Shown here in pieces: positions 8,691 through 58,142 of a stretch of 64,000 nt of DNA. This stretch comes from an uncultured Bacteroidales bacterium (lineage in GTDB: Bacteria > Bacteroidota > Bacteroidia > Bacteroidales > Paludibacteraceae). Each line of letters opens with the position of its first letter. Position 1 is the stretch's first letter. The stretch spans positions 51,504-115,503 of the forward strand of contig CADCBP010000004.1 in NCBI GenBank assembly GCA_902799705.1, read 5' to 3'. The notes below the pieces were generated by a model. The model had not been told where the DNA came from, searched no databases, and saw nothing but the letters and a program-made list of their open reading frames with translations. The position numbers and the translations under genes were made by a program.

Positions 8691-8699
8691 TTAGTTAAT

Positions 8700-8876
8700 A
8701 GAACTGCGTATGAGAATCAAAGATTTGAGACACTTTGTGTTTAGATGCGATGCATTTAGAAACTTTGCTTTTAGAACTGCGTATGAGAATCAAAGATTTG
8801 AGACACTTTGTGTTTAGATGCGATGCATTTAGAAGCTATTTTTTTAGAACTGCCTTTGAGAATCAAAGATTAGAGA
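8700..8876 (+). repeat. 73-bp tandem repeat, 2.4 copies
   Basis: Two nearly identical 73-bp units starting AGAACTGCGTATGAG (8700 and 8773) are followed by a partial, more divergent copy from 8846. The rest of the gap to 8962 is low-complexity sequence with scattered AAGGC and CTAAA words and no gene. Confidence 0.85.
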
Positions 8877-24996: not shown

Positions 24997-25079
24997 ATTG
25001 GTCTTTTATAAGTCAACAATTACCAACAATGACCAAAAATTATTTATAGAAGTAATCAAAAAAACTTAAAGAAAAATAC

Positions 25080-25204
25080 AGATTCTACAGTTGCTCTATG
25101 CAACTTAGTGTAATCGCTCATCAGCCTACATAAAAACAAGCTTTCCCGATAGTCTGCTAATCGATTCCACTTATCAGTACCAATAATTGCCACTGATAGA
25201 ATCT
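25080..25204. repeat. structured element (family E), intergenic copy
   Basis: Outer stem AGATTCTA (25080-25087) with TAGAATCT (25197-25204), 8 bp, 125 nt overall. First hairpin GTTGC/GCAAC (25090-25104), last hairpin ATCAGT/ACTGAT (25173-25178 with 25192-25197). Left flank AAAAATAC, right flank TTCACAAAAAAT followed by a mini hairpin CGCTGCG. It fills most of the gene-free stretch 24909-25384. Confidence 0.7.
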
Positions 25205-25384
25205 TCACAAAAAATCGCTGCGCTTCAAAAAATACCGAAAATGCTATGCAGCGTGTTAGTGAAAAGAAAACCGATAAAAGAAAGTAACCAAAGAAAAATT
25301 AAAAACAGGTGGTACATATAGGTGTTACAACAAATAATTGAAAATTGTAACACCTTATGTAACACCGTTAAAATTTAATCTATT

Positions 25385-25705
25385 ATGGACCAATTTGATG
25401 CATTATGGACTATGCTCCGCCAACATGGCTCATCTGCCAAGAGGGAGCATGAATGTGTGCAGTTATGGCGCACCTATTCGCCTACGTTACAGCAACAGAT
25501 TTTCAATGCTATCTGTTCTAAGCTTGAGCATAACAAGTTCGTACATTACGACCCTCTGCGTGCAATCCAAGAAAACGCCAGGGCTGTGCAGACACAGACG
25601 CTTTCGTACAAAGAGTATTATGCTCGATATGGTACGACGGAGGAACGAGACGGATGGAAAATGGAGAATCCGACAGGACAGAAGGTGATATATGTTAGGG
25701 ATTAG
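25385..25705 (+). CDS. small protein of unknown function
   Basis: 106 aa, not recognised. Helical, polar, with LWRTYSPTLQQQIFNAICSKL and a Tyr-rich SYKEYYARYG segment; a soluble small DNA- or protein-binding role is possible but unproven. Leader of about 400 bp containing a structured element. It ends within a TTAGGG word repeat. Confidence 0.55.
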   Translation: MDQFDALWTMLRQHGSSAKREHECVQLWRTYSPTLQQQIFNAICSKLEHNKFVHYDPLRAIQENARAVQTQTLSYKEYYARYGTTEERDGWKMENPTGQKVIYVRD

Positions 25706-25736
25706 GGTTTAGGGATTAGGGTTTAGGGTTTAGGGG
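25695..25736 (+). repeat. TTAGGG-like word repeat
   Basis: About six units alternating TTAGGGA and TTTAGGG at the 3' end of the preceding gene, whose stop codon lies in the first unit. It resembles telomeric repeats only by chance of the word. Confidence 0.85.
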
Positions 25737-25851
25737 AAGGGATGGTATAGTGACGTACAGGATGGTCGCGAAATGGTCGTGTAGTTGCAATGAATTTTAT
25801 ACGAATTATCACTAGTGTACCATTAAAAAAGAACAAAAACATAGATAAACC

Positions 25852-25971
25852 CTTTTAAAGGCTTTTGCGCTTCGCACTATGCGTACTTTGTTGCTAAAAA
25901 CTCCTTGAGTGCAAGCACCCAGAAAGTTTTTAACACCAAATAACATCCTTACGGGATAAAGCATTTAAAAG
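25852..25971. repeat. structured element (family E), variant flanks
   Basis: Outer stem CTTTTAAAGGCTTT (25852-25865) with AAAGCATTTAAAAG (25958-25971), 13 of 14 paired, 120 nt overall. Inside are AAAAACT/AGTTTTT (25896-25902 with 25925-25931) enclosing GTGC-AA-GCAC, and ATCC-TTAC-GGAT. Flanks are ACATAGATAA and ACATAAACAT instead of the usual ones. No gene lies in 25706-26017. Confidence 0.6.
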
Positions 25972-26017
25972 ACATAAACATCAAAAACAATAAATACTAT
26001 TAGTAAAAAAATACAAT

Positions 26018-26257
26018 ATGAAAGTAGAATTGATTATACCTATAGAGACGTTGAGAGGGGCGCTAAGGAAGGACGGATACTACTTCCGGTTATACCGAGG
26101 TGTACAGATCGTTCAACGATGCCCCAATCGGTCAGGGCATACGAAAACAGCAGCAGAGGCGGCAAATCAACGTAAGTTTGCTGCGAAGTACGGGAGGCGG
26201 AAACCGGCATCCGATGCCGGACTAACTAACGAAGAAAAAGATCCAACTCACGAATGA
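26018..26257 (+). CDS. small basic protein of unknown function
   Basis: 79 aa. The central YRGVQIVQRCPNRSGHTK and AANQRKFAAKYG resemble, weakly, the layout in the proteins at 26301, 27549 and 28321 (a Tyr/Phe-Arg strand, a basic turn, then an Ala-rich helix with a KFA/RFA motif). Family unknown. It is followed at 43 bp by the next small gene. Confidence 0.5.
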   Translation: MKVELIIPIETLRGALRKDGYYFRLYRGVQIVQRCPNRSGHTKTAAEAANQRKFAAKYGRRKPASDAGLTNEEKDPTHE

Positions 26258-26300
26258 GTAGGTTAAAAACGAAAAGTATAATGTTTAATCTTTAAAAAGA

Positions 26301-26558
26301 ATGGCAAGAGTAACACCACCAATGGGGATCAGGAGTATCTCCGGAAAAGTAGGAAACGTATGTTTCAGGACAATGAAAGGAAGCGGGAAAGTGTATATGA
26401 GCGCACTGCCGAGTAAACGAACAACGAAATTGCAGGAGAGTGAGATAGAGGCTCGTGAACGGTTTGCAAAAAGAGCACGATTGGTAAAGGCGATGCGGCA
26501 GGAAGGGTCTAAATTGATGCCAAAGGAACTTTGGAAATTAGCAGAGCAAGCGGTATAG
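26301..26558 (+). CDS. small basic protein, paralogous set
   Basis: 85 aa. GIRSISGKVGNVCFRTMKGS is followed by KVYMSALPSKRTT and EIEARERFAKRARLV. The same order (Ser-Gly start, CFRT-like strand, TGKVY turn, then an Ala/Arg helix with RFAK) is seen at 27549 and 28321, so these form a divergent family of one small fold. Highly basic, so nucleic-acid binding is possible. Probably co-transcribed with 26018 and 26563. Confidence 0.6.
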   Translation: MARVTPPMGIRSISGKVGNVCFRTMKGSGKVYMSALPSKRTTKLQESEIEARERFAKRARLVKAMRQEGSKLMPKELWKLAEQAV

Positions 26559-26562
26559 GCCT

Positions 26563-26718
26563 ATGAGGGAAACGACAATCAAGCGACACTGCAAGATCCG
26601 AAAACGCTACAAGGAACTGTTAGGTACGGATTCGGTCATGAATATCTACTACAGCATAGGCGATGAATTTTGCATGAGTGTGGATAGGGTGCGGCAGATC
26701 ATCGCTATGCGCAAGTAG
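26563..26718 (+). CDS. 51-aa protein with HTH-like end
   Basis: A short frame starting MRETTIKRHCKIRKRY begins 4 bp after the previous stop. The C-terminal SIGDEFCMSVDRVRQIIAMRK has the look of the second half of a sigma-like helix-turn-helix. The tight spacing and the clean frame support a real gene; too short for a firm family call. Confidence 0.5.
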   Translation: MRETTIKRHCKIRKRYKELLGTDSVMNIYYSIGDEFCMSVDRVRQIIAMRK

Positions 26719-26773
26719 AAAAAACGTAAAAAAATGAGGGGTTTTATGTGCGATTGGTGAAAATCACTAACAC

Positions 26774-26799
26774 TTTCGTGCCAAAACCCCTTATCTTTG
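26774..26799 (+). promoter_or_regulatory. likely promoter of the 26896 gene
   Basis: TATCTTTG at 26792-26799 is a good -7 box; the nearest -33-like TTTC (26774) is closer than usual. The leader is about 90 nt. Confidence 0.5.
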
Positions 26800-26895
26800 C
26801 ATCGTTTTTCGAGAAGAGATAATCGAAAACGCGTTTTTACACAAGCGAATTAACCCACTCAACAATCATAAATCATCAATTTGACAACGTCAACA

Positions 26896-27240
26896 ATGTA
26901 TTTGAAATTTGTAAGACATAATCATCTCAGCGGTAATATTAGCCGCGGAAGCCTCTATAGCGTTCACTTCGAGCCCAACGAAAAGGGCGGGTATAATGAA
27001 CACCGAACTCTCATCAGCGACGCGTATGAGGTTGATTCCGAGGTGAATTATCCGCCAGCGCTGATTTACGAAGCCGAGGTACGGCGCACGAATGGCCACA
27101 TGCGTCTGTCCTTCGGCAGAGGCAACCGGCAATCTTTGCTGCACCTTATTGATCGCGATGCGCGCGAGCAGTTCTTTGCTGAACTTCTTGACGCCCTCCG
27201 CCATCACGAAGATGTGCGGATTGAAGTCGCGCAGGTTTAA
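26896..27240 (+). CDS. small protein of unknown function
   Basis: 114 aa from ATG 26896 (a TTG at 26881 extends it by five residues). Beta-rich first half (YLKFVRHNHLSGNISRGSLY), then a helix with DAREQFFAELLDALRHH. No family recognised. Its GC content and codon use look higher than those of the neighbouring genes. It is followed by a structured element. Confidence 0.55.
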   Translation: MYLKFVRHNHLSGNISRGSLYSVHFEPNEKGGYNEHRTLISDAYEVDSEVNYPPALIYEAEVRRTNGHMRLSFGRGNRQSLLHLIDRDAREQFFAELLDALRHHEDVRIEVAQV

Positions 27241-27295
27241 CCTTTAAATTAACTAAACGTTCACCCGTGATCTTTGAAAAGTAAATCGAAAATGC

Positions 27296-27419
27296 GCAGC
27301 CTACCGAGCTTGATAACTCTCGAGCCCGAGAACCTGAATGTCGGTCAGTAAGTAAACTTCCTTCCTCCATCCATGCTCTCTGTCTCAATCGACTACCTTG
27401 ACAGTCGTCGACTGGCTGC
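27296..27419. repeat. structured element (family E), intergenic copy
   Basis: Outer stem GCAGCC (27296-27301) with GGCTGC (27414-27419), 124 nt overall. First hairpin CTCG-AGCC-CGAG (27319-27330), last hairpin CGACT/AGTCG (27390-27407). Flanks AAAATGCG and TTACAAAAAT, then ATCCC-TTT-GGGAT. It fills the 27241-27548 gap. Confidence 0.75.
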
Positions 27420-27548
27420 TTACAAAAATATCCCTTTGGGATAGAAAATAATGAAAATCTATGCAGTGCACAGCAAATATTTTGGAATTTTTGATTTACA
27501 AAGTAGAACTTCCGGAAAACTAAATTAACAATCTAAACTTTAATAACA

Positions 27549-27890
27549 ATGGCAGAAATCAAACCGATGGCTCTTATCGAGAGCATGAAGAAAAAAGTGT
27601 GCGAACACAGCGATGTTTACTTCCGTACCAACAAGCGCACCGGAAAAGTGACGACCGGCAAGTTATGCAACCCCTCCACGAAGGAGCCGAGTGCTGCGCA
27701 GATTGCGGCGAAAGCGCGTTTCACGAAGGTGCAAGCGGCTGTTCGCGAGATTTTGGCCGGCACAAGCGAGCAAAAGACCGCATTAGTAGCCGGATACAAG
27801 TCGCAGACCAAGTATGGTTCGCTATTCGGTTATGCGATGCACAAGCTCAACGACCAGTACGACGAAAACGGCGATAAAATAGGAGGTTAA
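27549..27890 (+). CDS. small basic protein, paralogous set
   Basis: 113 aa. SDVYFRTNKRTGKVTTGKLC and AAQIAAKARFTKVQAAVREIL repeat the pattern of 26301 and 28321, with an added C-terminal segment (YGSLFGYAMHKLNDQY). Function unknown. It is followed by a 57-aa lipoprotein gene after 1 bp, so the two are one unit. Confidence 0.6.
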   Translation: MAEIKPMALIESMKKKVCEHSDVYFRTNKRTGKVTTGKLCNPSTKEPSAAQIAAKARFTKVQAAVREILAGTSEQKTALVAGYKSQTKYGSLFGYAMHKLNDQYDENGDKIGG

Positions 27891-27891
27891 A

Positions 27892-28065
27892 ATGAGAAAG
27901 ATTTTGATTGTAAGTATCATAGGTGTCCTAGGGGCGCTTGTGTTTGAAGCGTGCAATGTGACGCGAACGATCACCACCCGAAGCGAGGCATGGCAGAAAG
28001 GCGACACATCTGTCGTAATCCAGAGCAAGACGATCGAGACGTATGATGCGTCGAAGAAACTCTGA
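27892..28065 (+). CDS. small putative lipoprotein
   Basis: 57 aa starting MRKILIVSIIGVLGALVFEAC: a positive start, a hydrophobic core and a Cys at residue 21 as a loose Bacteroidota lipobox (FEAC). The short mature part is rich in Thr and Ser (TRTITTRSEAW). Its start lies 1 bp after the previous stop, with a GGAGG site at 27882-27886. Confidence 0.6.
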   Translation: MRKILIVSIIGVLGALVFEACNVTRTITTRSEAWQKGDTSVVIQSKTIETYDASKKL

Positions 28066-28086
28066 TTTTGAAAGTAAACGAAAATG

Positions 28087-28205
28087 CGGCAGGACGGCTA
28101 CTGATGTAGCCTAATGGGCACCGGCTTTTGCTCTCTTGCGAGCAAGCTCCCAGAGGACAAAAACCAATACCCATTCCGCCCGACTTCAATAAGTCGTCCG
28201 TCTGC
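28087..28205. repeat. structured element (family E), clearest fold
   Basis: Outer stem GGCAG (28087-28091) with CTGCC (28201-28205). Inside: hairpin 1 GGCTAC-TGAT-GTAGCC (28095-28110); arm 2 AATGGG/CCCATT (28112-28117 with 28169-28174) enclosing TTGCTC/GAGCAA; hairpin 3 CGACTT-CAAT-AAGTCG (28180-28195). This is a four-way, cloverleaf-like junction of 119 nt. Flanks AAAATGC and TTACAAAAAT. No gene in 28066-28320. Confidence 0.8.
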
Positions 28206-28320
28206 CTTACAAAAATAATAAAAAATAAGAAAAATATTTTAAAGTTACTAGGGGACTAAGTACCAAGTACTATCCGCATTTTCGATTTAAAATTATTAAC
28301 CATTAAACCAAATTTTAACT

Positions 28321-28704
28321 ATGGCAAAAGTAAACTGGAGTGCCGGTATCGACAGCGTATCCGGAGCACTCGCAAAACCGAGCAAGAGCGGTCATCACTC
28401 TTGTGCCAAAATGCTCCTGGGCACGCACCGCGTTGCGGCTACCACGAGCAAAGATTGTAACCGCGTGTATATCCGCCGCAAGGTGGAGCGCTCGACGGAA
28501 GTGACAGTCAAGGAACTGAAGGCTCGTTCCCGTTTCGCAGAGGTAGGCAGAGCCGTTCGCCTGCGTGCCAAAGACCTCATGCAGATCAATGCCGACCAGG
28601 CGGCGTTCCTCGCGCAACGCGACACGGCAGGTGGTTGCCAGACCATGAAGGCCTACTTGTGGAAAGTATGCGGCGAAGCGTACGACGAGCAGCACGGAGC
28701 GTAA
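28321..28704 (+). CDS. small basic protein, paralogous set
   Basis: 127 aa. WSAGIDSVSGALAKPSKSG, then NRVYIRRKVERST and ELKARSRFAEVGRAVRLRAK, the same ordered pattern as 26301 and 27549. Function unknown. GC-rich compared with the polysaccharide genes. It lies between two structured elements. Confidence 0.6.
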   Translation: MAKVNWSAGIDSVSGALAKPSKSGHHSCAKMLLGTHRVAATTSKDCNRVYIRRKVERSTEVTVKELKARSRFAEVGRAVRLRAKDLMQINADQAAFLAQRDTAGGCQTMKAYLWKVCGEAYDEQHGA

Positions 28705-28705
28705 T

Positions 28706-28792
28706 GCAGCGGAGCTGCAATGATGAATTGAGCGCGACTACGTCGCTCAATGATGAATTGATGGAAAGGGAGACCCTTCGGGGCCGCCCTTT
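28706..28792. repeat. hairpin repeat block (family F)
   Basis: Three small hairpins in a row: GCAGC-GGA-GCTGC (28706-28718), GCGAC-TAC-GTCGC in an AATTGAG...GCTCAATGATG frame (around 28731-28754), and AAAGGG/CCCTTT (28765-28792). About 26 bp around the second are identical to 32610-32635. Confidence 0.7.
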
Positions 28793-28813
28793 CTCTTGTG
28801 TAATCAAAAATGC

Positions 28814-28946
28814 GCATTTACGTCCGCTAAGCCTACGGCCTACGCGACCAGGAGCGTAATCTTCCACAAGCGCTCGCAAGCAAGCTTGCAGCGCTCGTAA
28901 AAGCCTACACTCCCAACTCGCTGCTTAATAGCAGCACGTTGAATGC
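28814..28946. repeat. structured element (family E), intergenic copy
   Basis: Outer stem GCATT (28814-28818) with AATGC (28942-28946). Arms: TACGC/GCGTA (28841-28858), a long arm AGCGCT-GCAAGC with GCTTGC-AGCGCT (28869-28895), and CTGCT-TAAT-AGCAG (28921-28934). It is clearly homologous in sequence to the copy inside the gene at 37127. The right flank TTACAAAAATGCG is followed by a mini hairpin GGATT/AATCC and a second TTACAAAAAA. Confidence 0.78.
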
Positions 28947-29084
28947 TTACAAAAATGCGGATTTGCAATCCTTACAAAAAATAACAAAAATAAAATGGGT
29001 ATTTAAATGTTATTTTTCTATCAAATATAAACACCCAAAGGGCATTTTTCGGAGGTCTCTTTTTTTTGTAATTATACAAAAATA

Positions 29085-31266: not shown

Positions 31267-32364
31267 GTGAGGCGGTTTTTGCGGATGATAGGAATGTGGG
31301 TGGCGGTGACAGTAGTGCTACTCGGCGGAGCGGAATGGATAGCAGAGTCCATTCCGAATTCGTATGTATATAAGCGCGAGTATATGGAGACGCACGGGGG
31401 TGAGATAAAGACCCTGATTTTGGGTTCATCCAATGCGTATGACGGACTCAATCCTTCGGAGTTGCCGGCGGCGTTTAATCTGGCGAACAGCAGTCAGACA
31501 CTTGAGGATGATTATCGGTTGTTAGCGAAGTATATAGACGGCATGGATTCGCTGGAGACCGTGATACTCGGATTGGGGTATCATAGTTTGGGAGAGGCGC
31601 AGGAGACGCACAGGAGAACATACTACACGATCTATATGGATCTTTATCCGCGATGGCCAATCAGTAAGAACAGTTTTGAGGTGTTTAATCTTGAACTGCT
31701 GACGAAGAAGATCATCAAGTATGCGGCGTCGCGGGACGTGACGCGATGCGACAGTCTGGGGCAGCGGTTAGGGCATACCCGGGAGGCAGCGGAGAATGGA
31801 GATGAGTTTTGGAATAAGGATGTCGAATCGTTGATTGCCAACGATCGATGGGAGAGTAACAAAAACATACAAAACACGGCCTACGCCGATATAAACAAAG
31901 AAAACAAAAATGCGGAATCGACAGTCGCAGAGCGCGACTTACGCGTAACTACCAACCAACCTGCTCGTGAGCAAGCTCCCGGACCGGATGCTTGCGAGTT
32001 CCGCACCGCAGGTACTGGTATCCAGTCCCCGCAGGATTTCTTACAAAAATGCGTCGTACCTCCTTACGAAAATGACAAAAATAATGCCAATGCTATGTTA
32101 GAGAGAATGGCAGATCTCTGTCAAGCGCGGGGAGTGAAGATGGTGGTGGTGCAGATGCCGGTGATGAAGGCATATAAAGAGGCGCTGCCGAAGGAGCAGG
32201 TCGCGGTGCAGGATAGCGTATTGCGGGCGTTGGAAGGGAAGGCGGTTTGTATCGATGCTTCGGAATGGGAGATACCCGCGGACGGGTGGTATAACGCAAC
32301 GCATCTGACAAGAGAGGCATCATCGGAATTTACCAAGAAGCTGAGAGAAGTTTTTTATAAGTGA
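31267..32364 (+). CDS. SGNH-like secreted/membrane-anchored protein with family E insert
   Basis: 365 aa from GTG 31267; ATG at 31285 is an alternative. One N-terminal membrane anchor (MWVAVTVVLLGGAEWIAE) and then a hydrolase-like domain with LILGSSNAYDG and a C-terminal DGWYNATHLT resembling the DxxH of SGNH/AlgX/DltD-like O-acetyl-transfer proteins. Residues about 198-277 are an insertion encoded by an A-rich leader (CGGCCTACGCCG hairpin) plus a full structured element; after it the domain resumes with MLERMADLCQARGVKMVVVQMP. Likely role: acylation of the exported polysaccharide (inferred). Confidence 0.65.
   Translation: MRRFLRMIGMWVAVTVVLLGGAEWIAESIPNSYVYKREYMETHGGEIKTLILGSSNAYDGLNPSELPAAFNLANSSQTLEDDYRLLAKYIDGMDSLETVILGLGYHSLGEAQETHRRTYYTIYMDLYPRWPISKNSFEVFNLELLTKKIIKYAASRDVTRCDSLGQRLGHTREAAENGDEFWNKDVESLIANDRWESNKNIQNTAYADINKENKNAESTVAERDLRVTTNQPAREQAPGPDACEFRTAGTGIQSPQDFLQKCVVPPYENDKNNANAMLERMADLCQARGVKMVVVQMPVMKAYKEALPKEQVAVQDSVLRALEGKAVCIDASEWEIPADGWYNATHLTREASSEFTKKLREVFYK
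31915..32039. repeat. structured element (family E) inside a coding region
   Basis: Outer stem GAATC (31915-31919) with GATTT (32035-32039, one G-T pair), 125 nt. Hairpins AGTCGC/GCGACT (31923-31939), TGCTC-GT-GAGCA (31962-31973), ACTGG-TAT-CCAGT (32014-32026). Flanks AAAAATGCG and CTTACAAAAATGCG. It is translated in frame without a stop. Confidence 0.78.
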
Positions 32365-32539
32365 TAGCATTTCCGGTTAATTAATTTTAATTTCCCGGTG
32401 CCCAATATCCGCTAATCATTACATCCAACTCATAGTTGTCCGTCCGCCTTACAAAAACACGCTAACGCTCACAAAAATGTCCTCTTTTTTGCTATAGAAC
32501 AATAAATTCTAATTTATTCAGCGAAAAATCAGCCTAAAA

Positions 32540-37126: not shown

Positions 37127-38521
37127 ATGAAAATTATAGTATATTTGGGACATCCGGCACATTTTCATTTGTACAAGAACGTCATTCAGAATCTGAAGAA
37201 TGACGGGCATACAGTGGAGGTGCTGATTAAGAAAAAAGAGAATCTGGAGCAGTTGCTGCAGAACTCGGGTATTCCGTATCATAACATCCTGCGAGAGGGA
37301 CGAAAGGATACGAAAGTAGGAATGGCGTTCGGTGCCATCAAACGCATCTGGCGCGAGTTGGTATTCTGCATCAAAGAAAAGCCGGATCTGCTGACTGGAA
37401 CCAGTGTGGAGAACTCATACGTAGGTCCGCTGCTGCGGATACCGGTGGTGTACTGCGGAGAAGATGATGCGGATGTGATTCCGTTGCAGGCGAAGATATG
37501 TTACCCCGGCGCAAGTGTGGTGCTGACCCCTGACAGTTGCGATGATGGTCAGTGGAACGGCAAGACGACGAAGTATCCGTCTTACCATGAGTTGGCATAT
37601 CTGCATCCGAACCATTTCAAGGCTTCGAAGCAGATTGTGAAGGAGCAGGGTATCAACCCGGACAAACCATACGCCATCATGCGGTTCGTGAAGCTCAAAG
37701 CGAACCATGACGACAACATCAAGGGAATCAATAAAGAGGTGGCTTTGCGGTTGATCGAGCTGATGAAACCGCATTTGGAGATCTATATCACAAGTGAGCG
37801 ACCGTTAGAGCCGGAGTTGGAACCGTACCGTATCCGGATCAATCCGATATACATGCATGACGTGATGGCGTTCGCGAGTCTGTATATCGGCGACAGCCAG
37901 ACGATGGCGGCTGAGGCCGGAGTATTAGGCGTGCCGTTCGTGCGGTTCAATGACTTCGTGGGAAGGATAGGGTATCTGCGAGAGCTCGAGGATGATTATC
38001 ATCTTGGCATCGGCATACATGCGTCGCCCTTAAATGAAGAGGAAAACAAAAACAATAAAAACACGGCCTACGCCGACATAAACATAGATAAGAAAAATAC
38101 GCATTCTACGCCCGCTATGTCCGATGGTCCACGCGGCCTGGAGCGTAACCACCCACAAGCGCTCACAAGCGAGCTTGCAGCGCCTGTAGATGCTAACACT
38201 CCTAACCTGCTGCCTGATGAGCAGCACGTTGAATGCTTACAAAAATGCGATGTTCCTTCTTTCGAAAATGACAAAAATAATAGCACCGCTACATGTGGAA
38301 ATATTCCGTTAAGCGGTACGGAGGCGTTATATGAGGCGGTGGAGAAGTTGATGGCATTGACGGAAGAGGAACGGAAGCGCATATATGGCGAGCGGGTGAA
38401 GAAGATGTTGGAGGAGAAGATTGATTATGCGAAATTCCTGACGTGGTTTATCGAGAACTATCCCGCCAGCGCAGAGACTACACGCAAAGCAGACAAAGCA
38501 TTTTGGAAACAATTTAAGTAA
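37127..38521 (+). CDS. DUF354 GT-B-like protein with family E insert
   Basis: 464 aa, about 90 longer than usual. DUF354 features: MKIIVYLGHPAHFHLYKNV, LTGTSVENSYVGPLLRIPVV, IMRFVKLKANHDD and YIGDSQTMAAEAGVLGVPFV. After YHLGIG the protein enters an insert (residues about 302-390) made of an A-rich leader (EENKNNKNTAYADINI) and a structured element, then resumes with the C-terminal helices (LYEAVEKLMALTEEER). The insert is at the surface-exposed end of the second Rossmann domain and may be tolerated. Likely acts on a sugar or lipid carrier (inferred). Confidence 0.75.
   Translation: MKIIVYLGHPAHFHLYKNVIQNLKNDGHTVEVLIKKKENLEQLLQNSGIPYHNILREGRKDTKVGMAFGAIKRIWRELVFCIKEKPDLLTGTSVENSYVGPLLRIPVVYCGEDDADVIPLQAKICYPGASVVLTPDSCDDGQWNGKTTKYPSYHELAYLHPNHFKASKQIVKEQGINPDKPYAIMRFVKLKANHDDNIKGINKEVALRLIELMKPHLEIYITSERPLEPELEPYRIRINPIYMHDVMAFASLYIGDSQTMAAEAGVLGVPFVRFNDFVGRIGYLRELEDDYHLGIGIHASPLNEEENKNNKNTAYADINIDKKNTHSTPAMSDGPRGLERNHPQALTSELAAPVDANTPNLLPDEQHVECLQKCDVPSFENDKNNSTATCGNIPLSGTEALYEAVEKLMALTEEERKRIYGERVKKMLEEKIDYAKFLTWFIENYPASAETTRKADKAFWKQFK
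38101..38236. repeat. structured element (family E) inside a coding region
   Basis: Outer stem GCATT (38101-38105) with AATGC (38232-38236), 136 nt. AGCGCT...AGCGC and CAAGC/GCTTG form the central arm (38158-38183), CTGCT/AGCAG the last hairpin (38207-38224). Long blocks match the intergenic copy at 28814 (GAGCTTGCAGCGC-like and CAGCACGTTGAATGCTTAC), proving that the same element occurs inside and outside genes. Flanks AAAAATAC and TTACAAAAATGCG. Confidence 0.82.
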
Positions 38522-38532
38522 AAGAAAAATGC

Positions 38533-38648
38533 GGCAGTACGGCATAAATTGCCTGAATGCGACCAACTAATCATCCGCTGATAGTAAACTCTCAGACGTA
38601 TGCTTACTTGTTCGCCTTCCAGTCCGATATAAATATCGTACTACTGCC
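38533..38648. repeat. structured element (family E), left copy of a direct pair
   Basis: Outer stem GGCAGTA (38533-38539) with TACTGCC (38642-38648), 116 nt. First hairpin GGCA/TGCC (38541-38553), last hairpin CGATAT-AA-ATATCG (38625-38638). The right flank TTACAAAAAT is followed by ATCCAT-TAT-ATGGAT. The region 38507-38695, including the last codons of the DUF354 gene, is repeated at 39238-39425 with few differences. Confidence 0.82.
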
Positions 38649-38792
38649 TTACAAAAATATCCATTATATGGATTGAAAAATACCAAAAATAGCCATGCCG
38701 GGCGAGGCACAGCAGGGTACATACAAAAATATCCATAGCATGGATTGAAAAATACCAAAAATAGCTTTAAAATAGCGAAGATACTATTCACA

Positions 38793-39239
38793 ATGGCGGA
38801 GAAGACGCAGATGCATATTGTAGAGGAGTCGAAGCGGCGGGAGTTGATACAGGCTTGTTACGGGATAATCGGGTGTATGCAAGAGGTACATAACCAATTA
38901 GGCCCTGGACTGCCGGAGTATTTATACCAAGAAGCGTTAACGACGGAATTGGTAGCTAACGGTTATACGGTCCATAAGGAATTCGAGTACCATCCATTGT
39001 ACAAGGGCAAAGAGATGAAAGCGTACCTGAAGATGGATATGGTAGTCGAAAGTGCGATAGGGAAGGTGATTATCGAATGTAAAGCACTAACCCAACTGAC
39101 CGAAAAGGAGCACTATCAGGTATTTGGTTATTTGCGCGGTACCGGTTGGCCGGTAGCTATATTGGTGAACTTTGGCACGAGCCCGAAAGCGCAGATTGAA
39201 CGATACCACTATAATGCGGGAACGATAGAGGTATTTTAA
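38793..39239 (+). CDS. GxxExxY protein (PD-(D/E)XK-like)
   Basis: 148 aa from ATG 38793 (an upstream in-frame ATG at 38745 lies in the repeat). The signature GPGLPEYLYQEAL gives the GxxExxY name, with IIECKAL and EKEHYQVFGYLR as the nuclease-like core and AILVNFG at the end. The family is widespread next to sugar genes in Bacteroidota and its function is unknown. It is bracketed by two direct copies of a 190-bp repeat, so it looks like a mobile or recently inserted unit. Confidence 0.88.
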   Translation: MAEKTQMHIVEESKRRELIQACYGIIGCMQEVHNQLGPGLPEYLYQEALTTELVANGYTVHKEFEYHPLYKGKEMKAYLKMDMVVESAIGKVIIECKALTQLTEKEHYQVFGYLRGTGWPVAILVNFGTSPKAQIERYHYNAGTIEVF

Positions 39240-39262
39240 ACAATTTAAGTAAAAGAAAATGC

Positions 39263-39378
39263 GGCAGTACGACATAAATTGCCTGAATGCAACCAACTAA
39301 TCATCCGCTGATAGTAAACTCTCAGACGTATGCTTACTTGCTCGCCTTCCAGTCCGATATAAATATCGTACTACTGCC
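39263..39378. repeat. structured element (family E), right copy of a direct pair
   Basis: Same sequence as 38533-38648 apart from a handful of changes; outer stem GGCAGTA (39263-39269) with TACTGCC (39372-39378). Substitutions such as CGGCATAAAT to CGACATAAAT weaken hairpin 1, so this copy may be decaying. The gap 39240-39485 has no gene. Confidence 0.82.
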
Positions 39379-39485
39379 TTACAAAAATAGCCATTAGATG
39401 GATTGAAAAAATACCCAAAATAGTCATGCAGGGCGAGGCGGGTACAGGCTGCGTATTTTTGATTATTTAGAAAATAATAACACAC

Positions 39486-40808
39486 ATGAAGATAACGATT
39501 ATTGCAGGGGCGAGACCCAATTTCATGAAAATAGCGCCTATTATTAAGGCGATTAAAGGGTGGAATGAGTTAACGAGTGAACGTTTAACGAATGAACGAA
39601 GTCTCATTCAGTACAGATTGGTGCATACGGGTCAGCATTATGACAAGAACATGAGCGACACGTTCTTCGAGGAGTTGGGGATTCCGGCTCCGGATGTGAA
39701 TCTGGGTTGCGGCGGTGGCAGTCAAGCCGAGCAGACGGCGGCTATCATGGTGGCATTCGAGAAAGAGTTGACGGCCCATCCTGCAGATATAGTGATGGTA
39801 GTAGGCGACGTGACCAGTACCATGGCTTGCTCTATCGTAGCAAAAAAACTGAACACGAAGGTATGCCACGTAGAGGCCGGAATCCGCAGTTGGGATCTGA
39901 CAATGCCGGAAGAGATCAACCGCATGGTTACAGATGCTTTGGCCGATTATATGTTCACTACATCAGAAGTCGCGAACCGCAATCTCATACGCATGGGAGC
40001 AGTATTAGAAAGTAAACCAAAAATACGGGATCTCCAGTCGTTAAACAACGACCTACACTGCCTTGCCCCGCAGTCTGCTCGTAAACAAGCTTCCGGACAG
40101 ACTACTGTTCAAATCAGTGCTGTAGAACCAGAGTTTCTGCAGGATCCCTCACAAAAATACGCTTCGCTCACAAAAAATACCAAAAATATTTCGCAACGTG
40201 TGTGGTTTGTCGGTAACGTGATGATCGATACGCTGCTGGCGAACAGGAGCCGTTTCCGGAAACCGGAGGTATGGGATGAGTTGGGACTGAAAGAGAAGGA
40301 GTTTATCGTGATGACGATGCATCGTCCGGCGAATGTAGATGAAGAGAACCATCTGCGCGAGACGATGGAGCAGATAGTAAGTAACGTTCATGGATTGCCG
40401 GTGATATTCCCGATACATCCACGAACAGCGAAATTGCTGTTCGGGTTAGAGGGTGAAAGGGTTAGAGGTTTAGAGGGAATGCCGAATCTGCATATCGTGG
40501 AACCGATGGGATATTTAGAGTTTAACTATCTGGTAGAGCGCGCGAAGGCGGTGGTGACTGACAGCGGTGGTATCACCGAAGAGACGACGGTGATGGGTGT
40601 TCCGTGCCTCACGCTGCGCGATAATACCGAGCGTCCGGAGACCTGTACGATAGGTACGAACGAATTGATCGGGACGAATCCCGCAGCTATCAAGCCGGCA
40701 CTGGACAAACTCTTCGCCGGCGAATGGAAGAAAGGCGGTATCCCGGAGTTATGGGACGGGCACGCAGCGGAAAGAATAATAGGTATTCTTTCAAGAGTGA
40801 ATGAATGA
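39486..40808 (+). CDS. WecB-like UDP-GlcNAc 2-epimerase with inserts
   Basis: 440 aa against a usual 370-380. The family core is complete: GARPNFMKIAPIIKAI, VVGDVTSTMACSIVA, HVEAGIRSWD, PEEINRMVTD, MTMHRPANVD, HPRTAK and DSGGITEETTVMGVP. Extra parts: residues 27-38 (TTAACGAG words), residues 176-236 (a complete structured element, after NLIRMGAVLE and before RVWFVGNVMIDTLL), and residues about 320-331 (TTAGAGG words). The insert lies between the two Rossmann domains, away from the active site. The sequence type also fits WbpI-like epimerases that act on diacetamido-uronic acids, which would agree with the WlbA homologue at 43223. Confidence 0.82.
   Translation: MKITIIAGARPNFMKIAPIIKAIKGWNELTSERLTNERSLIQYRLVHTGQHYDKNMSDTFFEELGIPAPDVNLGCGGGSQAEQTAAIMVAFEKELTAHPADIVMVVGDVTSTMACSIVAKKLNTKVCHVEAGIRSWDLTMPEEINRMVTDALADYMFTTSEVANRNLIRMGAVLESKPKIRDLQSLNNDLHCLAPQSARKQASGQTTVQISAVEPEFLQDPSQKYASLTKNTKNISQRVWFVGNVMIDTLLANRSRFRKPEVWDELGLKEKEFIVMTMHRPANVDEENHLRETMEQIVSNVHGLPVIFPIHPRTAKLLFGLEGERVRGLEGMPNLHIVEPMGYLEFNYLVERAKAVVTDSGGITEETTVMGVPCLTLRDNTERPETCTIGTNELIGTNPAAIKPALDKLFAGEWKKGGIPELWDGHAAERIIGILSRVNE
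40027..40148. repeat. structured element (family E) inside a coding region
   Basis: Outer stem GGGATC (40027-40032) with GATCCC (40143-40148), 122 nt. Hairpins GTCGTT-AAAC-AACGAC (40037-40052), CAGTCTG/CAGACT (40071-40103), ACTG/CAGT (40104-40118), GTAGAA/TTTCTGC (around 40121-40140). Left flank AAAAATAC; right flank CTCACAAAAATACG, then a mini unit GCTTCGC and a second CTCACAAAAAAT. Confidence 0.8.
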
Positions 40809-40848: not shown

Positions 40849-42168
40849 ATGATGCAGATAGCTGATAGAGTACAACGGATAGCGGCATCGCAGAGTCTGG
40901 CGATGGCAGCGAGGGCGAAAGCCATGAAAGCGGCAGGGATTGACGTGATCAGTATGTCGTTAGGTGAACCTGACATGGATACACCCGAACATATCCGTCG
41001 TGCGGCACAGGAAGCGATAGACAACCATTGGTCTCATTACGGGCCTGTGGCGGGAATACCGAGCCTGCGCGAAGCGATTGCTGTCGCGCAGAATGCGCAA
41101 GAAGAGAGGCTTAGCGGATCAGCGATTAGAGGATTAGGGGTAAGGTTTGAGGCGGAGGATGTGATTGTGAGTGTCGGAGCGAAGATGGCGATTTATAATG
41201 CCATTCAGACGATGATCAACCCCGGCGACGAAGTGGTAATCCCGATGCCGAGTTGGGTGAGTTATACCGAGATGGTGAAGGTAGCCGGCGGAGAAGTAGT
41301 GGCAGTGCAGACGAAATACGAGAATCGGTATTGCATGACGGCAGAGGAGTTGCGTGCGGCGCTGACGGAAAAGACGCGGATGCTCATTCTTTGCAGCCCA
41401 AACAATCCGACCGGAAGCGTATATAGTTATGAAGAACTGAAAGCGATAGTAGCCGTCTTGCGGGAGTATCCGCAGGTGGTGGTGCTGAGCGACGAGATTT
41501 ACAATGCGCTGGTTTATTCAGATGAGGAAAACAAAAACAATAAAAACACGGCCTACGCCGACATAAACATAGAAAAAGAGGAAAACAAAAATATAGTATG
41601 CTCGATGGCATTCTTTGCGGAAATAGCGGAACGGTTGATTATCGTGAACGGAGTGAGTAAGGCGTATGCGATGACGGGCTGGCGGATAGGATGGTTGATG
41701 AGTAAGGACAAAGCGTTCATCGAGGCGTGTACGCGGCTGCAAGGACAGCAAGTGACGTGCGCGACGATGGTGGCACAGAAGGCCGCACAAGCTGCTTTGA
41801 CGGGATCTCGAGAGTGCGTAGAACAGATGCGGCAGGTGTTTGCAGAGCGGAGAGAGTTGATATGCCGGCTGGCGGCCGAGATACCGGGATTCCGGTTCGA
41901 GAAACCGCAAGGTGCGTTCTACCTGTTTCCAAATATCTCAACATTATTTGGAAAATTTGAGATTGGAGATTTGAGATTGGAGATTGATAATGCAGATGAT
42001 CTGGTTGAGTACCTGCTGGAAGAAGCGTACGTGGCGGTGGTGAGCGGTTCGGCATTCGGATGTCCGGAATGTATCAGACTATCCTACGCGATCAGTACGG
42101 AGGAGATCGCCGAGGCGATGCGGCGCATCCAAGTCGCAATCACAAGGATAGTAAATAAGCAAAAATAA
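40849..42168 (+). CDS. aspartate-type aminotransferase with three in-frame inserts
   Basis: PLP fold-type I aminotransferase (AspB group), 439 aa versus about 395. Core motifs: SLGEPDMDTPEHI, SVGAKMAIYNAI, CSPNNPTGSVY, VVLSDEIYNALVYS, and the PLP-lysine site NGVSKAYAMTGWRIGW. Inserts: residues about 87-100 (TTAGCGGAT words), residues 225-252 (the A-rich leader with the CGGCCTACGCCG hairpin seen before two structured elements, here without the element), and residues about 366-382 (TTGGAGATT words). All keep the frame. The substrate is uncertain: aspartate or another amino acid. Confidence 0.82.
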   Translation: MMQIADRVQRIAASQSLAMAARAKAMKAAGIDVISMSLGEPDMDTPEHIRRAAQEAIDNHWSHYGPVAGIPSLREAIAVAQNAQEERLSGSAIRGLGVRFEAEDVIVSVGAKMAIYNAIQTMINPGDEVVIPMPSWVSYTEMVKVAGGEVVAVQTKYENRYCMTAEELRAALTEKTRMLILCSPNNPTGSVYSYEELKAIVAVLREYPQVVVLSDEIYNALVYSDEENKNNKNTAYADINIEKEENKNIVCSMAFFAEIAERLIIVNGVSKAYAMTGWRIGWLMSKDKAFIEACTRLQGQQVTCATMVAQKAAQAALTGSRECVEQMRQVFAERRELICRLAAEIPGFRFEKPQGAFYLFPNISTLFGKFEIGDLRLEIDNADDLVEYLLEEAYVAVVSGSAFGCPECIRLSYAISTEEIAEAMRRIQVAITRIVNKQK

Positions 42169-56691: not shown

Positions 56692-56721
56692 AGAAATTAG
56701 AAATCAGAAATCAGAAATCAG
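56692..56721. repeat. AAATCAGA word repeat
   Basis: Four units between the end of metK and the start of lspA, touching the metK stop codon. Confidence 0.75.
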
Positions 56722-58028
56722 TTTTTTCCGAATGCTGCTTTGACTTGGTCAAGGCGGTCGAGTTTCTCCCATGTGAACAGTTCCACTTCGCGGGTATATT
56801 CATGGTCGTCGGCATCCAGGAAGGTCTTTGTTACAACCTCGTTCTTGCGTCCCATGTGCCCGTAGCGCGCAGTCTCTTCGTACATCGGTTGCGTCAGTTT
56901 GAGGTCGCGTGTGATTGAGGCAGGACGCAGGTCAAACAGCTCGCTCACTTTCTGAGCAATCTCCGCATCGCTCATTGCCACTTGGGCTGTTCCGAAAGTG
57001 TTGACGTACAGCGAGACGGGTTCGGCTACGCCGATGGCATAACTCACCTGTACCAATGCCTCGTGTGCTACTCCTGCTGCTACGAGGTGTTTGGCGATCC
57101 ACCGTGCCGCGTAGGCTGCCGAACGATCCACTTTCGACGGGTCCTTGCCGCTGAAGGCACCGCCGCCGTGGGCGCCGCGACCGCCGTACGTATCTACGAT
57201 GATCTTGCGGCCCGTCAGACCCGTGTCGCCGTGAGGACCGCCGATGACGAAGTTTCCCGTCGGGTTGACTAACAACTTCGCTTTCGGATCTTCAAGAAAC
57301 TGCTCCAGCAGATGACCGTAGCGCGAGTCGCGCGTCGCTACGCGGGGAAGGAGAATCTCGATAATATCTTTTTTGATTCGTTCACTCGTTAACTCTTTCG
57401 CTCCTTCACTCGTTGCCACCTCCGGATCATGCTGCGTCGAGAGCACAATCGTGTCGATACGTACCGGGCGCTGCCCGCATGGCTTTCCGTCTCGGTCACT
57501 GACCGCGTCGTACTCGATCGTCACTTGAGACTTGCTGTCAGGACGGAGGTATTGCATCTGTTTGCCTTCCTTCCGGATACGCGCGAGGGTATAAACTAAG
57601 GTGTGCGCCAAGTCCAGCGTCAGCGGCATGAAATTGTCCGTCTCGTCCGTCGCGTAACCGAACATCATTCCCTGGTCACCGGCGCCTTGCTCTTCCGCTA
57701 CATCGCGGCTCACGCCCATGTTGATATCAGGGCTCTGGGCATGAAGAGCCGTCAGGATACCGCAACTCTCCGCCTCAAATTTGTATTCCGACTTCGTGTA
57801 ACCAATCTCCGCTATCGTCTTGCGGGCTATCTTCTGCAGATCCACCCATCCTTTGCAACTCACCTCGCCCGCAATCACAACCTGACCCGTCGTACACATC
57901 GTCTCACAGGCTACGTGAGCATGGGGATCTTGAGCTAACATATTATCCAATATGGCGTCTGATATCTGATCCGCCACTTTGTCCGGGTGTCCTTCTGACA
58001 CCGACTCTGATGTAAATAAATAATGCAT
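56718..58028 (-). CDS. metK: S-adenosylmethionine synthetase with in-frame repeat
   Basis: 436 aa from the ATG whose A is at 58028 ([20 protein letters not shown]); a longer start would lie in the leader. Makes SAM from ATP and methionine. GHPDK, the GEVSC loop, [20 protein letters not shown] and [16 protein letters not shown] are all present. Between STQHDPEVA and [12 protein letters not shown] the residues [11 protein letters not shown] are encoded by a GAGTGAA word repeat (57366-57415), within a region that is variable in other MetK proteins. This shows that the repeats enter essential genes. Confidence 0.92.
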
Positions 58029-58142
58029 AGTATTGTATATAAAAAAATCCACAAGCGACTGTTTGGTCTTGTGGCACAAGTTTTAGCATTGTTTTAACGA
58101 GGTTGCAAGCAGTCAAATCCATCCTCTGTTTCAAATCCGCTG

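What the first reader, a model, noticed from the sequence alone, without database searches (positions are those of the whole stretch)
25080..28946. A family of ~120-nt cloverleaf-like elements with conserved fold but different sequence
Eleven segments of 105-136 nt (3313, 25080, 25852, 27296, 28087, 28814, 31915, 38101, 38533, 39263, 40027) each have a 5-14 bp outer stem closing several inner hairpins. In most, one hairpin begins a few bases after the left arm and one ends a few bases before the right arm. The stem sequences differ (GATTACA, AGATTCTA, GCAGCC, GGCAG, GCATT, GGCAGTA, GGGATC) yet pair in each case, which is compensatory change. That implies selection on a folded RNA or single-stranded DNA. 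I know of no named element with this form; a MITE-like palindrome, an attC-like folded recombination site and a non-coding RNA are all possible.
Basis: seen in the sequence. Interest (0 to 1): 0.88.

Follow-up and report, generated by a model that had tools for sequence, protein, structure and literature searches.

The report
Mobile cloverleaf DNA repeats with nuclease
A gut bacterium carries a family of folding DNA repeats that flank small nuclease genes, scatter between genes and even sit in frame inside genes, which suggests an undescribed kind of mobile element.

Summary
A covariance model built from five genome copies (one in the window) finds these ten, plus a truncated copy at 32334-32458, and not 3313. 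The copies share an outer stem, a short arm, a long arm, another short arm, and A-rich linkers. Outer stems change sequence yet pair: 21 of 23 distinct arm pairs are perfect over 5 bp (mean 4.9 of 5), against 3.1 when swapped. G-T cells are few (10, against 23 A-C) and 31 of 32 copies fold better on the other strand, which argues against a sense-strand RNA. Three window copies lie in frame inside ORFs, one in a wecB whose orthologues lack it. The new lead: copies 38528 and 39258 bracket a GxxExxY (PD-(D/E)XK nuclease) gene. In the genus, two GxxExxY clades carry two different linker types (10 of 11 and 10 of 10 loci), and both clades occupy a panD-tgt gap that is nearly empty in 22 of 24 genomes measured. 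I read this as a REP/RAYT-like mobile system with another nuclease; mobilisation by GxxExxY is inferred, not shown.

The parts
25075..25214 (+). cloverleaf copy, class-1 linkers, intergenic
   Evidence: R1 E 0.011; fold z -4.07
25864..25972 (+). cloverleaf copy with class-2 linkers (ATAAACATAGATAAA type), intergenic
   Evidence: R1 E 0.0024; three-arm fold
27291..27429 (+). cloverleaf copy, class 1, intergenic
   Evidence: R1 E 9e-5
28083..28216 (+). cloverleaf copy, class 1, intergenic (in the model's training set)
28809..28956 (+). cloverleaf copy, class 1, intergenic
   Evidence: R1 E 2.7e-9
31849..32090 (+). composite insert inside ORF 31267-32364, read in frame: small hairpin CGGCCTACGCCG, cloverleaf 31909-32050, tail
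   Evidence: (D7); outer ends approximate
   Evidence: R1 E 3.7e-5
38036..38290 (+). composite insert in frame inside the DUF354-family ORF 37127-38521, with cloverleaf 38096-38246
   Evidence: (D7); outer ends approximate
38507..38770 (+). left direct-repeat copy: last 15 nt of ORF 37127-38521, cloverleaf 38528-38658, tail hairpins
38811..39239 (+). GxxExxY gene (TIGR04256, PF13366), PD-(D/E)XK nuclease family, between the two direct repeats; start codon chosen by me
39238..39410 (+). right direct-repeat copy with cloverleaf 39258-39388; 160 nt at 96% identity to the left copy
   Evidence: (D4)
40022..40158 (+). cloverleaf copy in frame inside wecB (ORF 39486-40808)
41521..41576 (+). small class-2 hairpin insert without a cloverleaf, in frame inside an aminotransferase ORF (40849-42168)
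   Evidence: (D7)

Best explanation
The segments are copies of a mobile, palindromic DNA repeat. Each can fold into a four-way junction: an outer stem closing a short arm, a long arm and a second short arm. Some copies form the flanks of small units whose only gene is a GxxExxY nuclease of the PD-(D/E)XK type; the rest are gene-less derivatives. Inferred mechanism: the nuclease recognises the A-rich linker of its own class together with the folded DNA (extruded cruciform or single-stranded), cuts there, and break repair copies the segment elsewhere. Copies that are stop-free and aligned with transcription can persist inside genes as extra loops. Shown: the family, its covariation, its dispersal, the gene/linker coupling, filled and empty sites, and in-frame copies. 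Not shown: cleavage, movement, or that GxxExxY moves the gene-less copies.
For: R1 hits 16 of 37 genomes of the genus (own included) and 0 of 24 from other families (stricter filters); at least 26 places at E<=0.1 in the own genome. Outer stems covary at sequence-defined anchors: 21 of 23 distinct pairs are 5/5, swapped mean 3.08, highest of 2000 swaps 4.04. Window GxxExxY gene between two 160-nt direct repeats, 96% identical. R1 hits at E<=0.05 within 200 nt of the gene in 13 of 21 clade A/B GxxExxY loci and 4 of 31 others (counted by hand). Controls at E<=0.05: none in 29 other wecB loci (one place at E 0.35) or 29 other panD loci. Clade A: class-1 motifs in 10 of 11 loci; clade B: class-2 in 10 of 10, class-1 in none; each labelled set is one side of a tree branch. 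At the rimO gap, gene clade and linker class are swapped together. panD-tgt distance 56-128 nt in 22 of 24 loci measured, 852 in own (clade B), 911 in G003 (clade A). The model of GxxExxY has a nuclease fold.
Against: No cleavage or movement was observed and no target-site duplication was defined. Six genomes with R1 hits have no GxxExxY match at E<=1e-8 (G002, G006, G021, G022, G032, G034); four are under 89% complete, but G002 is listed at 90% and G034 at 97%. The motif lists were drawn up after I had seen the flanks, and three clade A and two clade B loci rest on one motif each. L141 (clade A, the panD-tgt unit of G003) has no class-1 motif; L189 has one class-2 beside four class-1. Of 31 other GxxExxY loci, 4 have class-1 and 3 class-2 motifs. 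Coupling rests on one split between two clades, so Fisher p 1.1e-5 ignores relatedness. R1 misses the class-2 unit of the own panD locus (E 0.5). Bacteroidota-wide, flank complementarity passed the mispaired 95th percentile in 13 of 30 loci, but 32 neighbouring ORFs had a 95th percentile of 49, above most of those scores. A looser cloverleaf signature was not specific (29 of 227 control windows).
Confidence: 0.6

Rival explanations
1. A structured RNA (cis-acting mRNA element or small RNA) selected for its fold; copies spread as regulatory or stabilising modules.
For: All 11 window copies lie on the same strand as the surrounding genes; real covariation.
Against: Only 10 G-T cells against 23 A-C in 36 pairs x 32 representatives; the reverse strand folds better in 31 of 32 (alignment fitted to the model). 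Copies occur in both orientations elsewhere, also as facing pairs. No Rfam family at gathering scores. Some copies are in ORFs.
Confidence: 0.12
2. GxxExxY genes and cloverleaf repeats merely share tolerant intergenic spots; the gene does not mobilise the repeats, which spread by another unseen enzyme or by replication slippage.
For: Same gaps host GxxExxY clades with different flanks; 31 loci outside clades A and B mostly lack the repeat; six genomes with copies but no GxxExxY match.
Against: At the rimO gap gene clade and linker class change together; no R1 hit at E<=0.05 in 29 other wecB and 29 other panD loci.
Confidence: 0.22
3. The repeats serve the host as transcription-stop or insulating elements: on the reverse strand hairpins are followed by a T-run, so orientation in operons is selected.
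For: Reverse-strand hairpins followed by CATTTTTG in many copies (by eye); co-orientation in the window; more copies with a stop-free frame in sense (35 of 78) than antisense (15 of 78).
Against: Presence differs between related genomes; copies read through inside ORFs do not act as stops there; orientation is equally explained by purifying selection against antisense copies.
Confidence: 0.06

Closest known systems
REP/REPIN repeats with RAYT (TnpA-REP) transposases, REPtrons
   Same: Palindromic dispersed repeats, an enzyme gene bracketed by copies, two protein groups with their own repeat types (co-evolution is stated in the abstract of PMC8266576)
   Different: REPs are 20-40 bp (abstract start of PMC3733652); here 110-150 nt with a four-way layout. 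Enzyme is of the PD-(D/E)XK type, not HUH; no Y1 transposase over cut-off in the genome
Rickettsia palindromic elements (RPEs)
   Same: About 150 bp, palindromic, inserted in frame in unrelated genes (passages of PMC10969869, and PMC3733652)
   Different: Another phylum; defined four-way fold; linked to a nuclease gene. Sequence relation to RPEs not tested
Integron attC sites
   Same: Folded, sequence-variable, structure-conserved sites after short genes (attC features recalled)
   Different: No paired core sites (0 of 78), no integron integrase over cut-off, copies inside ORFs
MITEs
   Same: Short gene-less derivatives beside a gene-bearing unit
   Different: No target-site duplication or matching transposase ends established

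Membership tests
REP/RAYT (REPtron) | HUH Y1 transposase (RAYT) in the genome | tested here: not met
   PF01797 in own genome: one match, 21.8 bits, under the cut-off of 23; genome listed as 94% complete
REP/RAYT (REPtron) | GTAG or CGTC tag beside the palindrome | tested here: not met
   GTAG near either end in 19 of 78 copies, CGTC in 2 of 78; not a family feature
REP/RAYT (REPtron) | Enzyme gene flanked by the repeat | tested here: met
   Window 38507-39410; repeat within 200 nt on at least one side in 13 of 21 clade A/B loci
Integron attC | RYYYAAC ... GTTRRRY core sites at the two ends (motif recalled) | tested here: not met
   0 of 78 with both ends, 5 of 78 with any
Integron attC | Integron integrase | tested here: not met
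   TIGR02249: 7 match rows, none over the cut-off; all 14 control genomes also ring
Rickettsia palindromic elements | In-frame insertion in unrelated genes | tested here: met
   Three window ORFs with cloverleaf; wecB orthologues without it
Rickettsia palindromic elements | Sequence relation to an RPE family | not tested
   no RPE sequences were compared
MITE | Target-site duplication | tested here: inconclusive
   No constant duplication seen by eye around copies; the window unit repeats 15 nt of the upstream gene
PD-(D/E)XK nucleases (for GxxExxY) | Fold and D...ExK residues | tested here: met
   PF13366 4.5e-29; model pLDDT 96.6, best Foldseek matches SSO0001 and Hjc; D76, E89, K91 conserved in at least 90% of 75 sequences

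The most novel reading that the evidence does not exclude
GxxExxY nucleases form a widespread class of minimal mobile elements whose substrate is a folded four-way DNA junction. The nuclease would act as a structure-specific enzyme on its own cloverleaf ends, and class-specific linkers would give each clade its own family of gene-less followers, some of them adapted to live in frame inside proteins.
Probability: 0.4. Interest if true: 0.87.

Novelty: new variant of a known kind. Interest (0 to 1): 0.72.

Why it matters
GxxExxY proteins are common (73 of 148 Bacteroidota genomes sampled, up to seven matches per genome), yet their family names give a motif and a fold, not a job. In the library searched the name GxxExxY appears in two papers, each time in passing. 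If they mobilise cognate folded DNA, a large family of unknown genes gains a testable job and a substrate. It would add a second enzyme class to the REP/RAYT type of repeat system, and a further bacterial lineage, besides Rickettsia, in which palindromic repeats add peptide loops to proteins.
Full report
WHAT IS THERE. The window is contig C4:51504-115503 of a 2.33-Mb genome listed as 94% complete. Five copies with a clear common fold, one from the window and four from elsewhere in the genome, gave alignment A3 and model R1. 3313 was not recovered, lacks the linkers, and folds only slightly better than shuffles (z -1.16). In the whole genome R1 gave 29 matches at E<=0.1; six are reverse readings of the same places, leaving 23, and three window copies come only with filters off, so at least 26 places, 13 of them on C4 (counted by hand, the weakest at E 0.09).

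ANATOMY. Reading along the plus strand: AAA(A)ATGCG; outer stem of about 5-9 bp; arm 1 (about 6 bp); arm 2 (about 60 nt); arm 3 (about 6 bp inside a short stem); then CTTACAAAAAT. Small hairpins separated by similar A-rich linkers often follow. The tip of arm 2 reads AGYAARCTY in 63 of 78 anchored copies, but many of these come from loci that one search had chosen by that tip, so the share is inflated. The terminal pattern CTYACAAAAATR occurs 35 times in the genome and its reversed control 0 times. A second linker class (ATAAACATAGATAAA type) surrounds elements with the same layout: of 13 stretches folded, about eight gave the three-arm form, by eye. Window 25864-25972 is one of these.

IS THE FOLD REAL? 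The strictest test used sequence-only anchors. A tip-plus-tail pattern that says nothing about the outer stem was scanned over the genome-contig collection. It hit 59 loci: 50 (53 places) in MAGs titled Bacteroidales or Paludibacteraceae, several from roe-deer gut or goat reticulum, and 9 scattered loci in other taxa. A left anchor was present in 50 of 53 Bacteroidales places and 0 of 9 others, so the nine are probably chance. Of 23 distinct arm pairs, 21 were perfect over 5 bp (mean 4.91); swapping partners gave 3.08, at most 4.04 in 2000 shuffles. In a model-fitted set of 32 representatives under 85% identity, 36 pairs were 90.7% paired against 57.3% in shuffles, and 34 of 36 had a two-sided change; shuffles averaged 28.5, highest 32. 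Being fitted, that alignment leans towards the structure. G-T cells were only 10 and A-C cells 23, and the reverse strand folds better in 31 of 32. I take this as selection, or copying, at DNA level rather than of a sense RNA; selection of hits by the model could also depress G-T. A single stem proves little: 56 of 63 1-kb blocks of the window contain a perfect 7-bp stem at that span.

DISTRIBUTION. R1 matched 16 of 37 genomes of the genus, the own one included, and 0 of 24 genomes from other families of the order, with stricter filters. That the genus belongs to gut Paludibacteraceae is my inference: several G genomes have contigs of exactly the length of named records found (for example 303338 and 86178 bases, G083). 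Copies differ between species and occur in both orientations elsewhere, sometimes as facing pairs.

INSIDE GENES. Three cloverleaf copies lie in frame within ORFs of the window: 31909 (ORF 31267-32364, no family match), 38096 (DUF354-family ORF) and 40022 (wecB). In wecB the insert lies before VGNVMIDTLL. I aligned 20 proteins of the 21 genomes with a match; the 19 others are 72-82% identical to the own one. Six have nothing at the site (L153, L155, L162-L165) and the rest carry other in-frame sequence there; none of the other loci has an R1 hit at E<=0.05. The model of own WecB (20 sequences, mean pLDDT 75.8) has 27-47 over residues 181-230, where the insert lies; residues 131-150 are also low, at 48-49, so the model only weakly supports an unfolded loop. 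A small hairpin of class 2 is in frame in the aminotransferase next door. Broken genes would escape this view, so I claim tolerance, not preference.

THE GxxExxY LINK. The ORF between copies 38528 and 39258 is a GxxExxY protein (TIGR04256 3.6e-30, PF13366 4.5e-29). The two copies are 160-nt direct repeats, 96% identical, and the repeat includes the last 15 nt of the upstream gene. The genome has three GxxExxY genes. The one at C4:34179 has R1 hits on both sides (E 3.5e-7 and 0.004). The one at C7:207357 has an upstream class-2 stretch that folds as a cloverleaf and a weak downstream R1 hit (E 0.5). In the genus, 27 of 61 genomes have GxxExxY genes at E<=1e-8; I examined all 52 loci listed. R1 hits at E<=0.05 within 200 nt of the gene occur in 7 of 11 clade A loci, 6 of 10 clade B loci and 4 of 31 others (counted by hand). 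At the same cut-off none was seen in 29 other wecB loci (some are two windows on one gene; one place at E 0.35) or in 29 other panD loci. Of the panD loci, own and G003 do hold a GxxExxY unit, so these are misses of R1 (own at E 0.5).

COUPLING. Clade A genes carry class-1 linker motifs in 10 of 11 loci (L141 has none; L189 also has one class-2 motif). Clade B genes carry class-2 in 10 of 10 and class-1 in none. Of 31 others, 4 have class-1 and 3 class-2 motifs (motifs chosen after seeing the flanks; five loci rest on a single motif; L189 was moved to clade A by me, as the tree confirms). On a tree of 49 proteins each labelled set is one side of a well supported branch. Independent evidence comes from shared gaps: upstream of rimO, L136 and L137 hold clade B with class 2 while L182 holds clade A with class 1. 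Between panD and tgt, own L114 holds clade B with class 2 and L141 (G003) holds clade A, whose flank has neither motif by count. From panD stop to a fixed tgt motif the distance is 56-128 nt in 22 of 24 measured loci, 852 in own and 911 in G003. So gene plus flanks behaves as an inserted unit. Flanks of GxxExxY genes are also self-complementary more often than mispaired flanks: 29 of 51 in the genus above the 95th percentile, 13 of 30 across Bacteroidota, where the neighbour-ORF control weakens the result.

HOW IT MOST LIKELY WORKS. By analogy with REPs and their TnpA-REP enzymes, I propose that GxxExxY recognises its own linker class and folded DNA, cuts, and repair spreads copies; gene-less copies follow in trans. 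Shown: family, fold covariation, unit-like insertion, coupling. Inferred: recognition, cutting, trans-mobilisation.

LITERATURE. GxxExxY occurs in two papers of the library, each one passing mention that I read as passages; the term PDDEXK_3 in none. In-frame RPEs are known (passages). REP/TnpA-REP co-evolution is from an abstract. Among the papers listed by searches (15 of 24 shown; 8 of 431 shown), no title or abstract start describes this family. The library holds open-licence PubMed Central papers only, no bioRxiv preprints.

Noticed in passing
window 3668, 5672, 7388, 31052, 41950, 54417 and others: Many arrays of 7-8-base units (GATTTGAGATTGGAG, AGTAATC, GTGAAAGA types); the one at 41950 lies inside the aminotransferase ORF and reads in frame there. 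Similar arrays fill some panD-tgt gaps in relatives.
   Followed up: partly
window 26301-26558, 27549-27890, 28321-28704: Three short ORFs without Pfam or NCBIfam match; the first two look related (37% over 60 aa), the third only weakly. A cloverleaf copy lies after the second and after the third.
   Followed up: partly
G000 contigs C5, C11, C12, C16: Class-1 linker repeats lie within about 300 bases of contig ends, so they may break the assembly and copy number may be underestimated.
   Followed up: no
L255-L284, flanks of GxxExxY genes: In several Bacteroidota genomes the gene sits between arrays like TTAACCACAGAGGACGCAGAG and their complement.
   Followed up: partly
L198, L228, L231, L235 and similar: Class-1 elements nested inside a larger palindrome (CTTTTGAAGGCTTT...AAAGCCTTCAAAAG type), some followed by class-2 linkers.
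   Followed up: no
wecB and aminotransferase loops, L146-L166 and L098: The same loops carry other in-frame inserted sequence in different species.
   Followed up: partly
window 58073-58132, minus strand: SAM-II riboswitch at the start of the minus-strand ORF 56718-58079.
   Followed up: no
window 8699-8876: 73-nt unit in about two and a half tandem copies.
   Followed up: no
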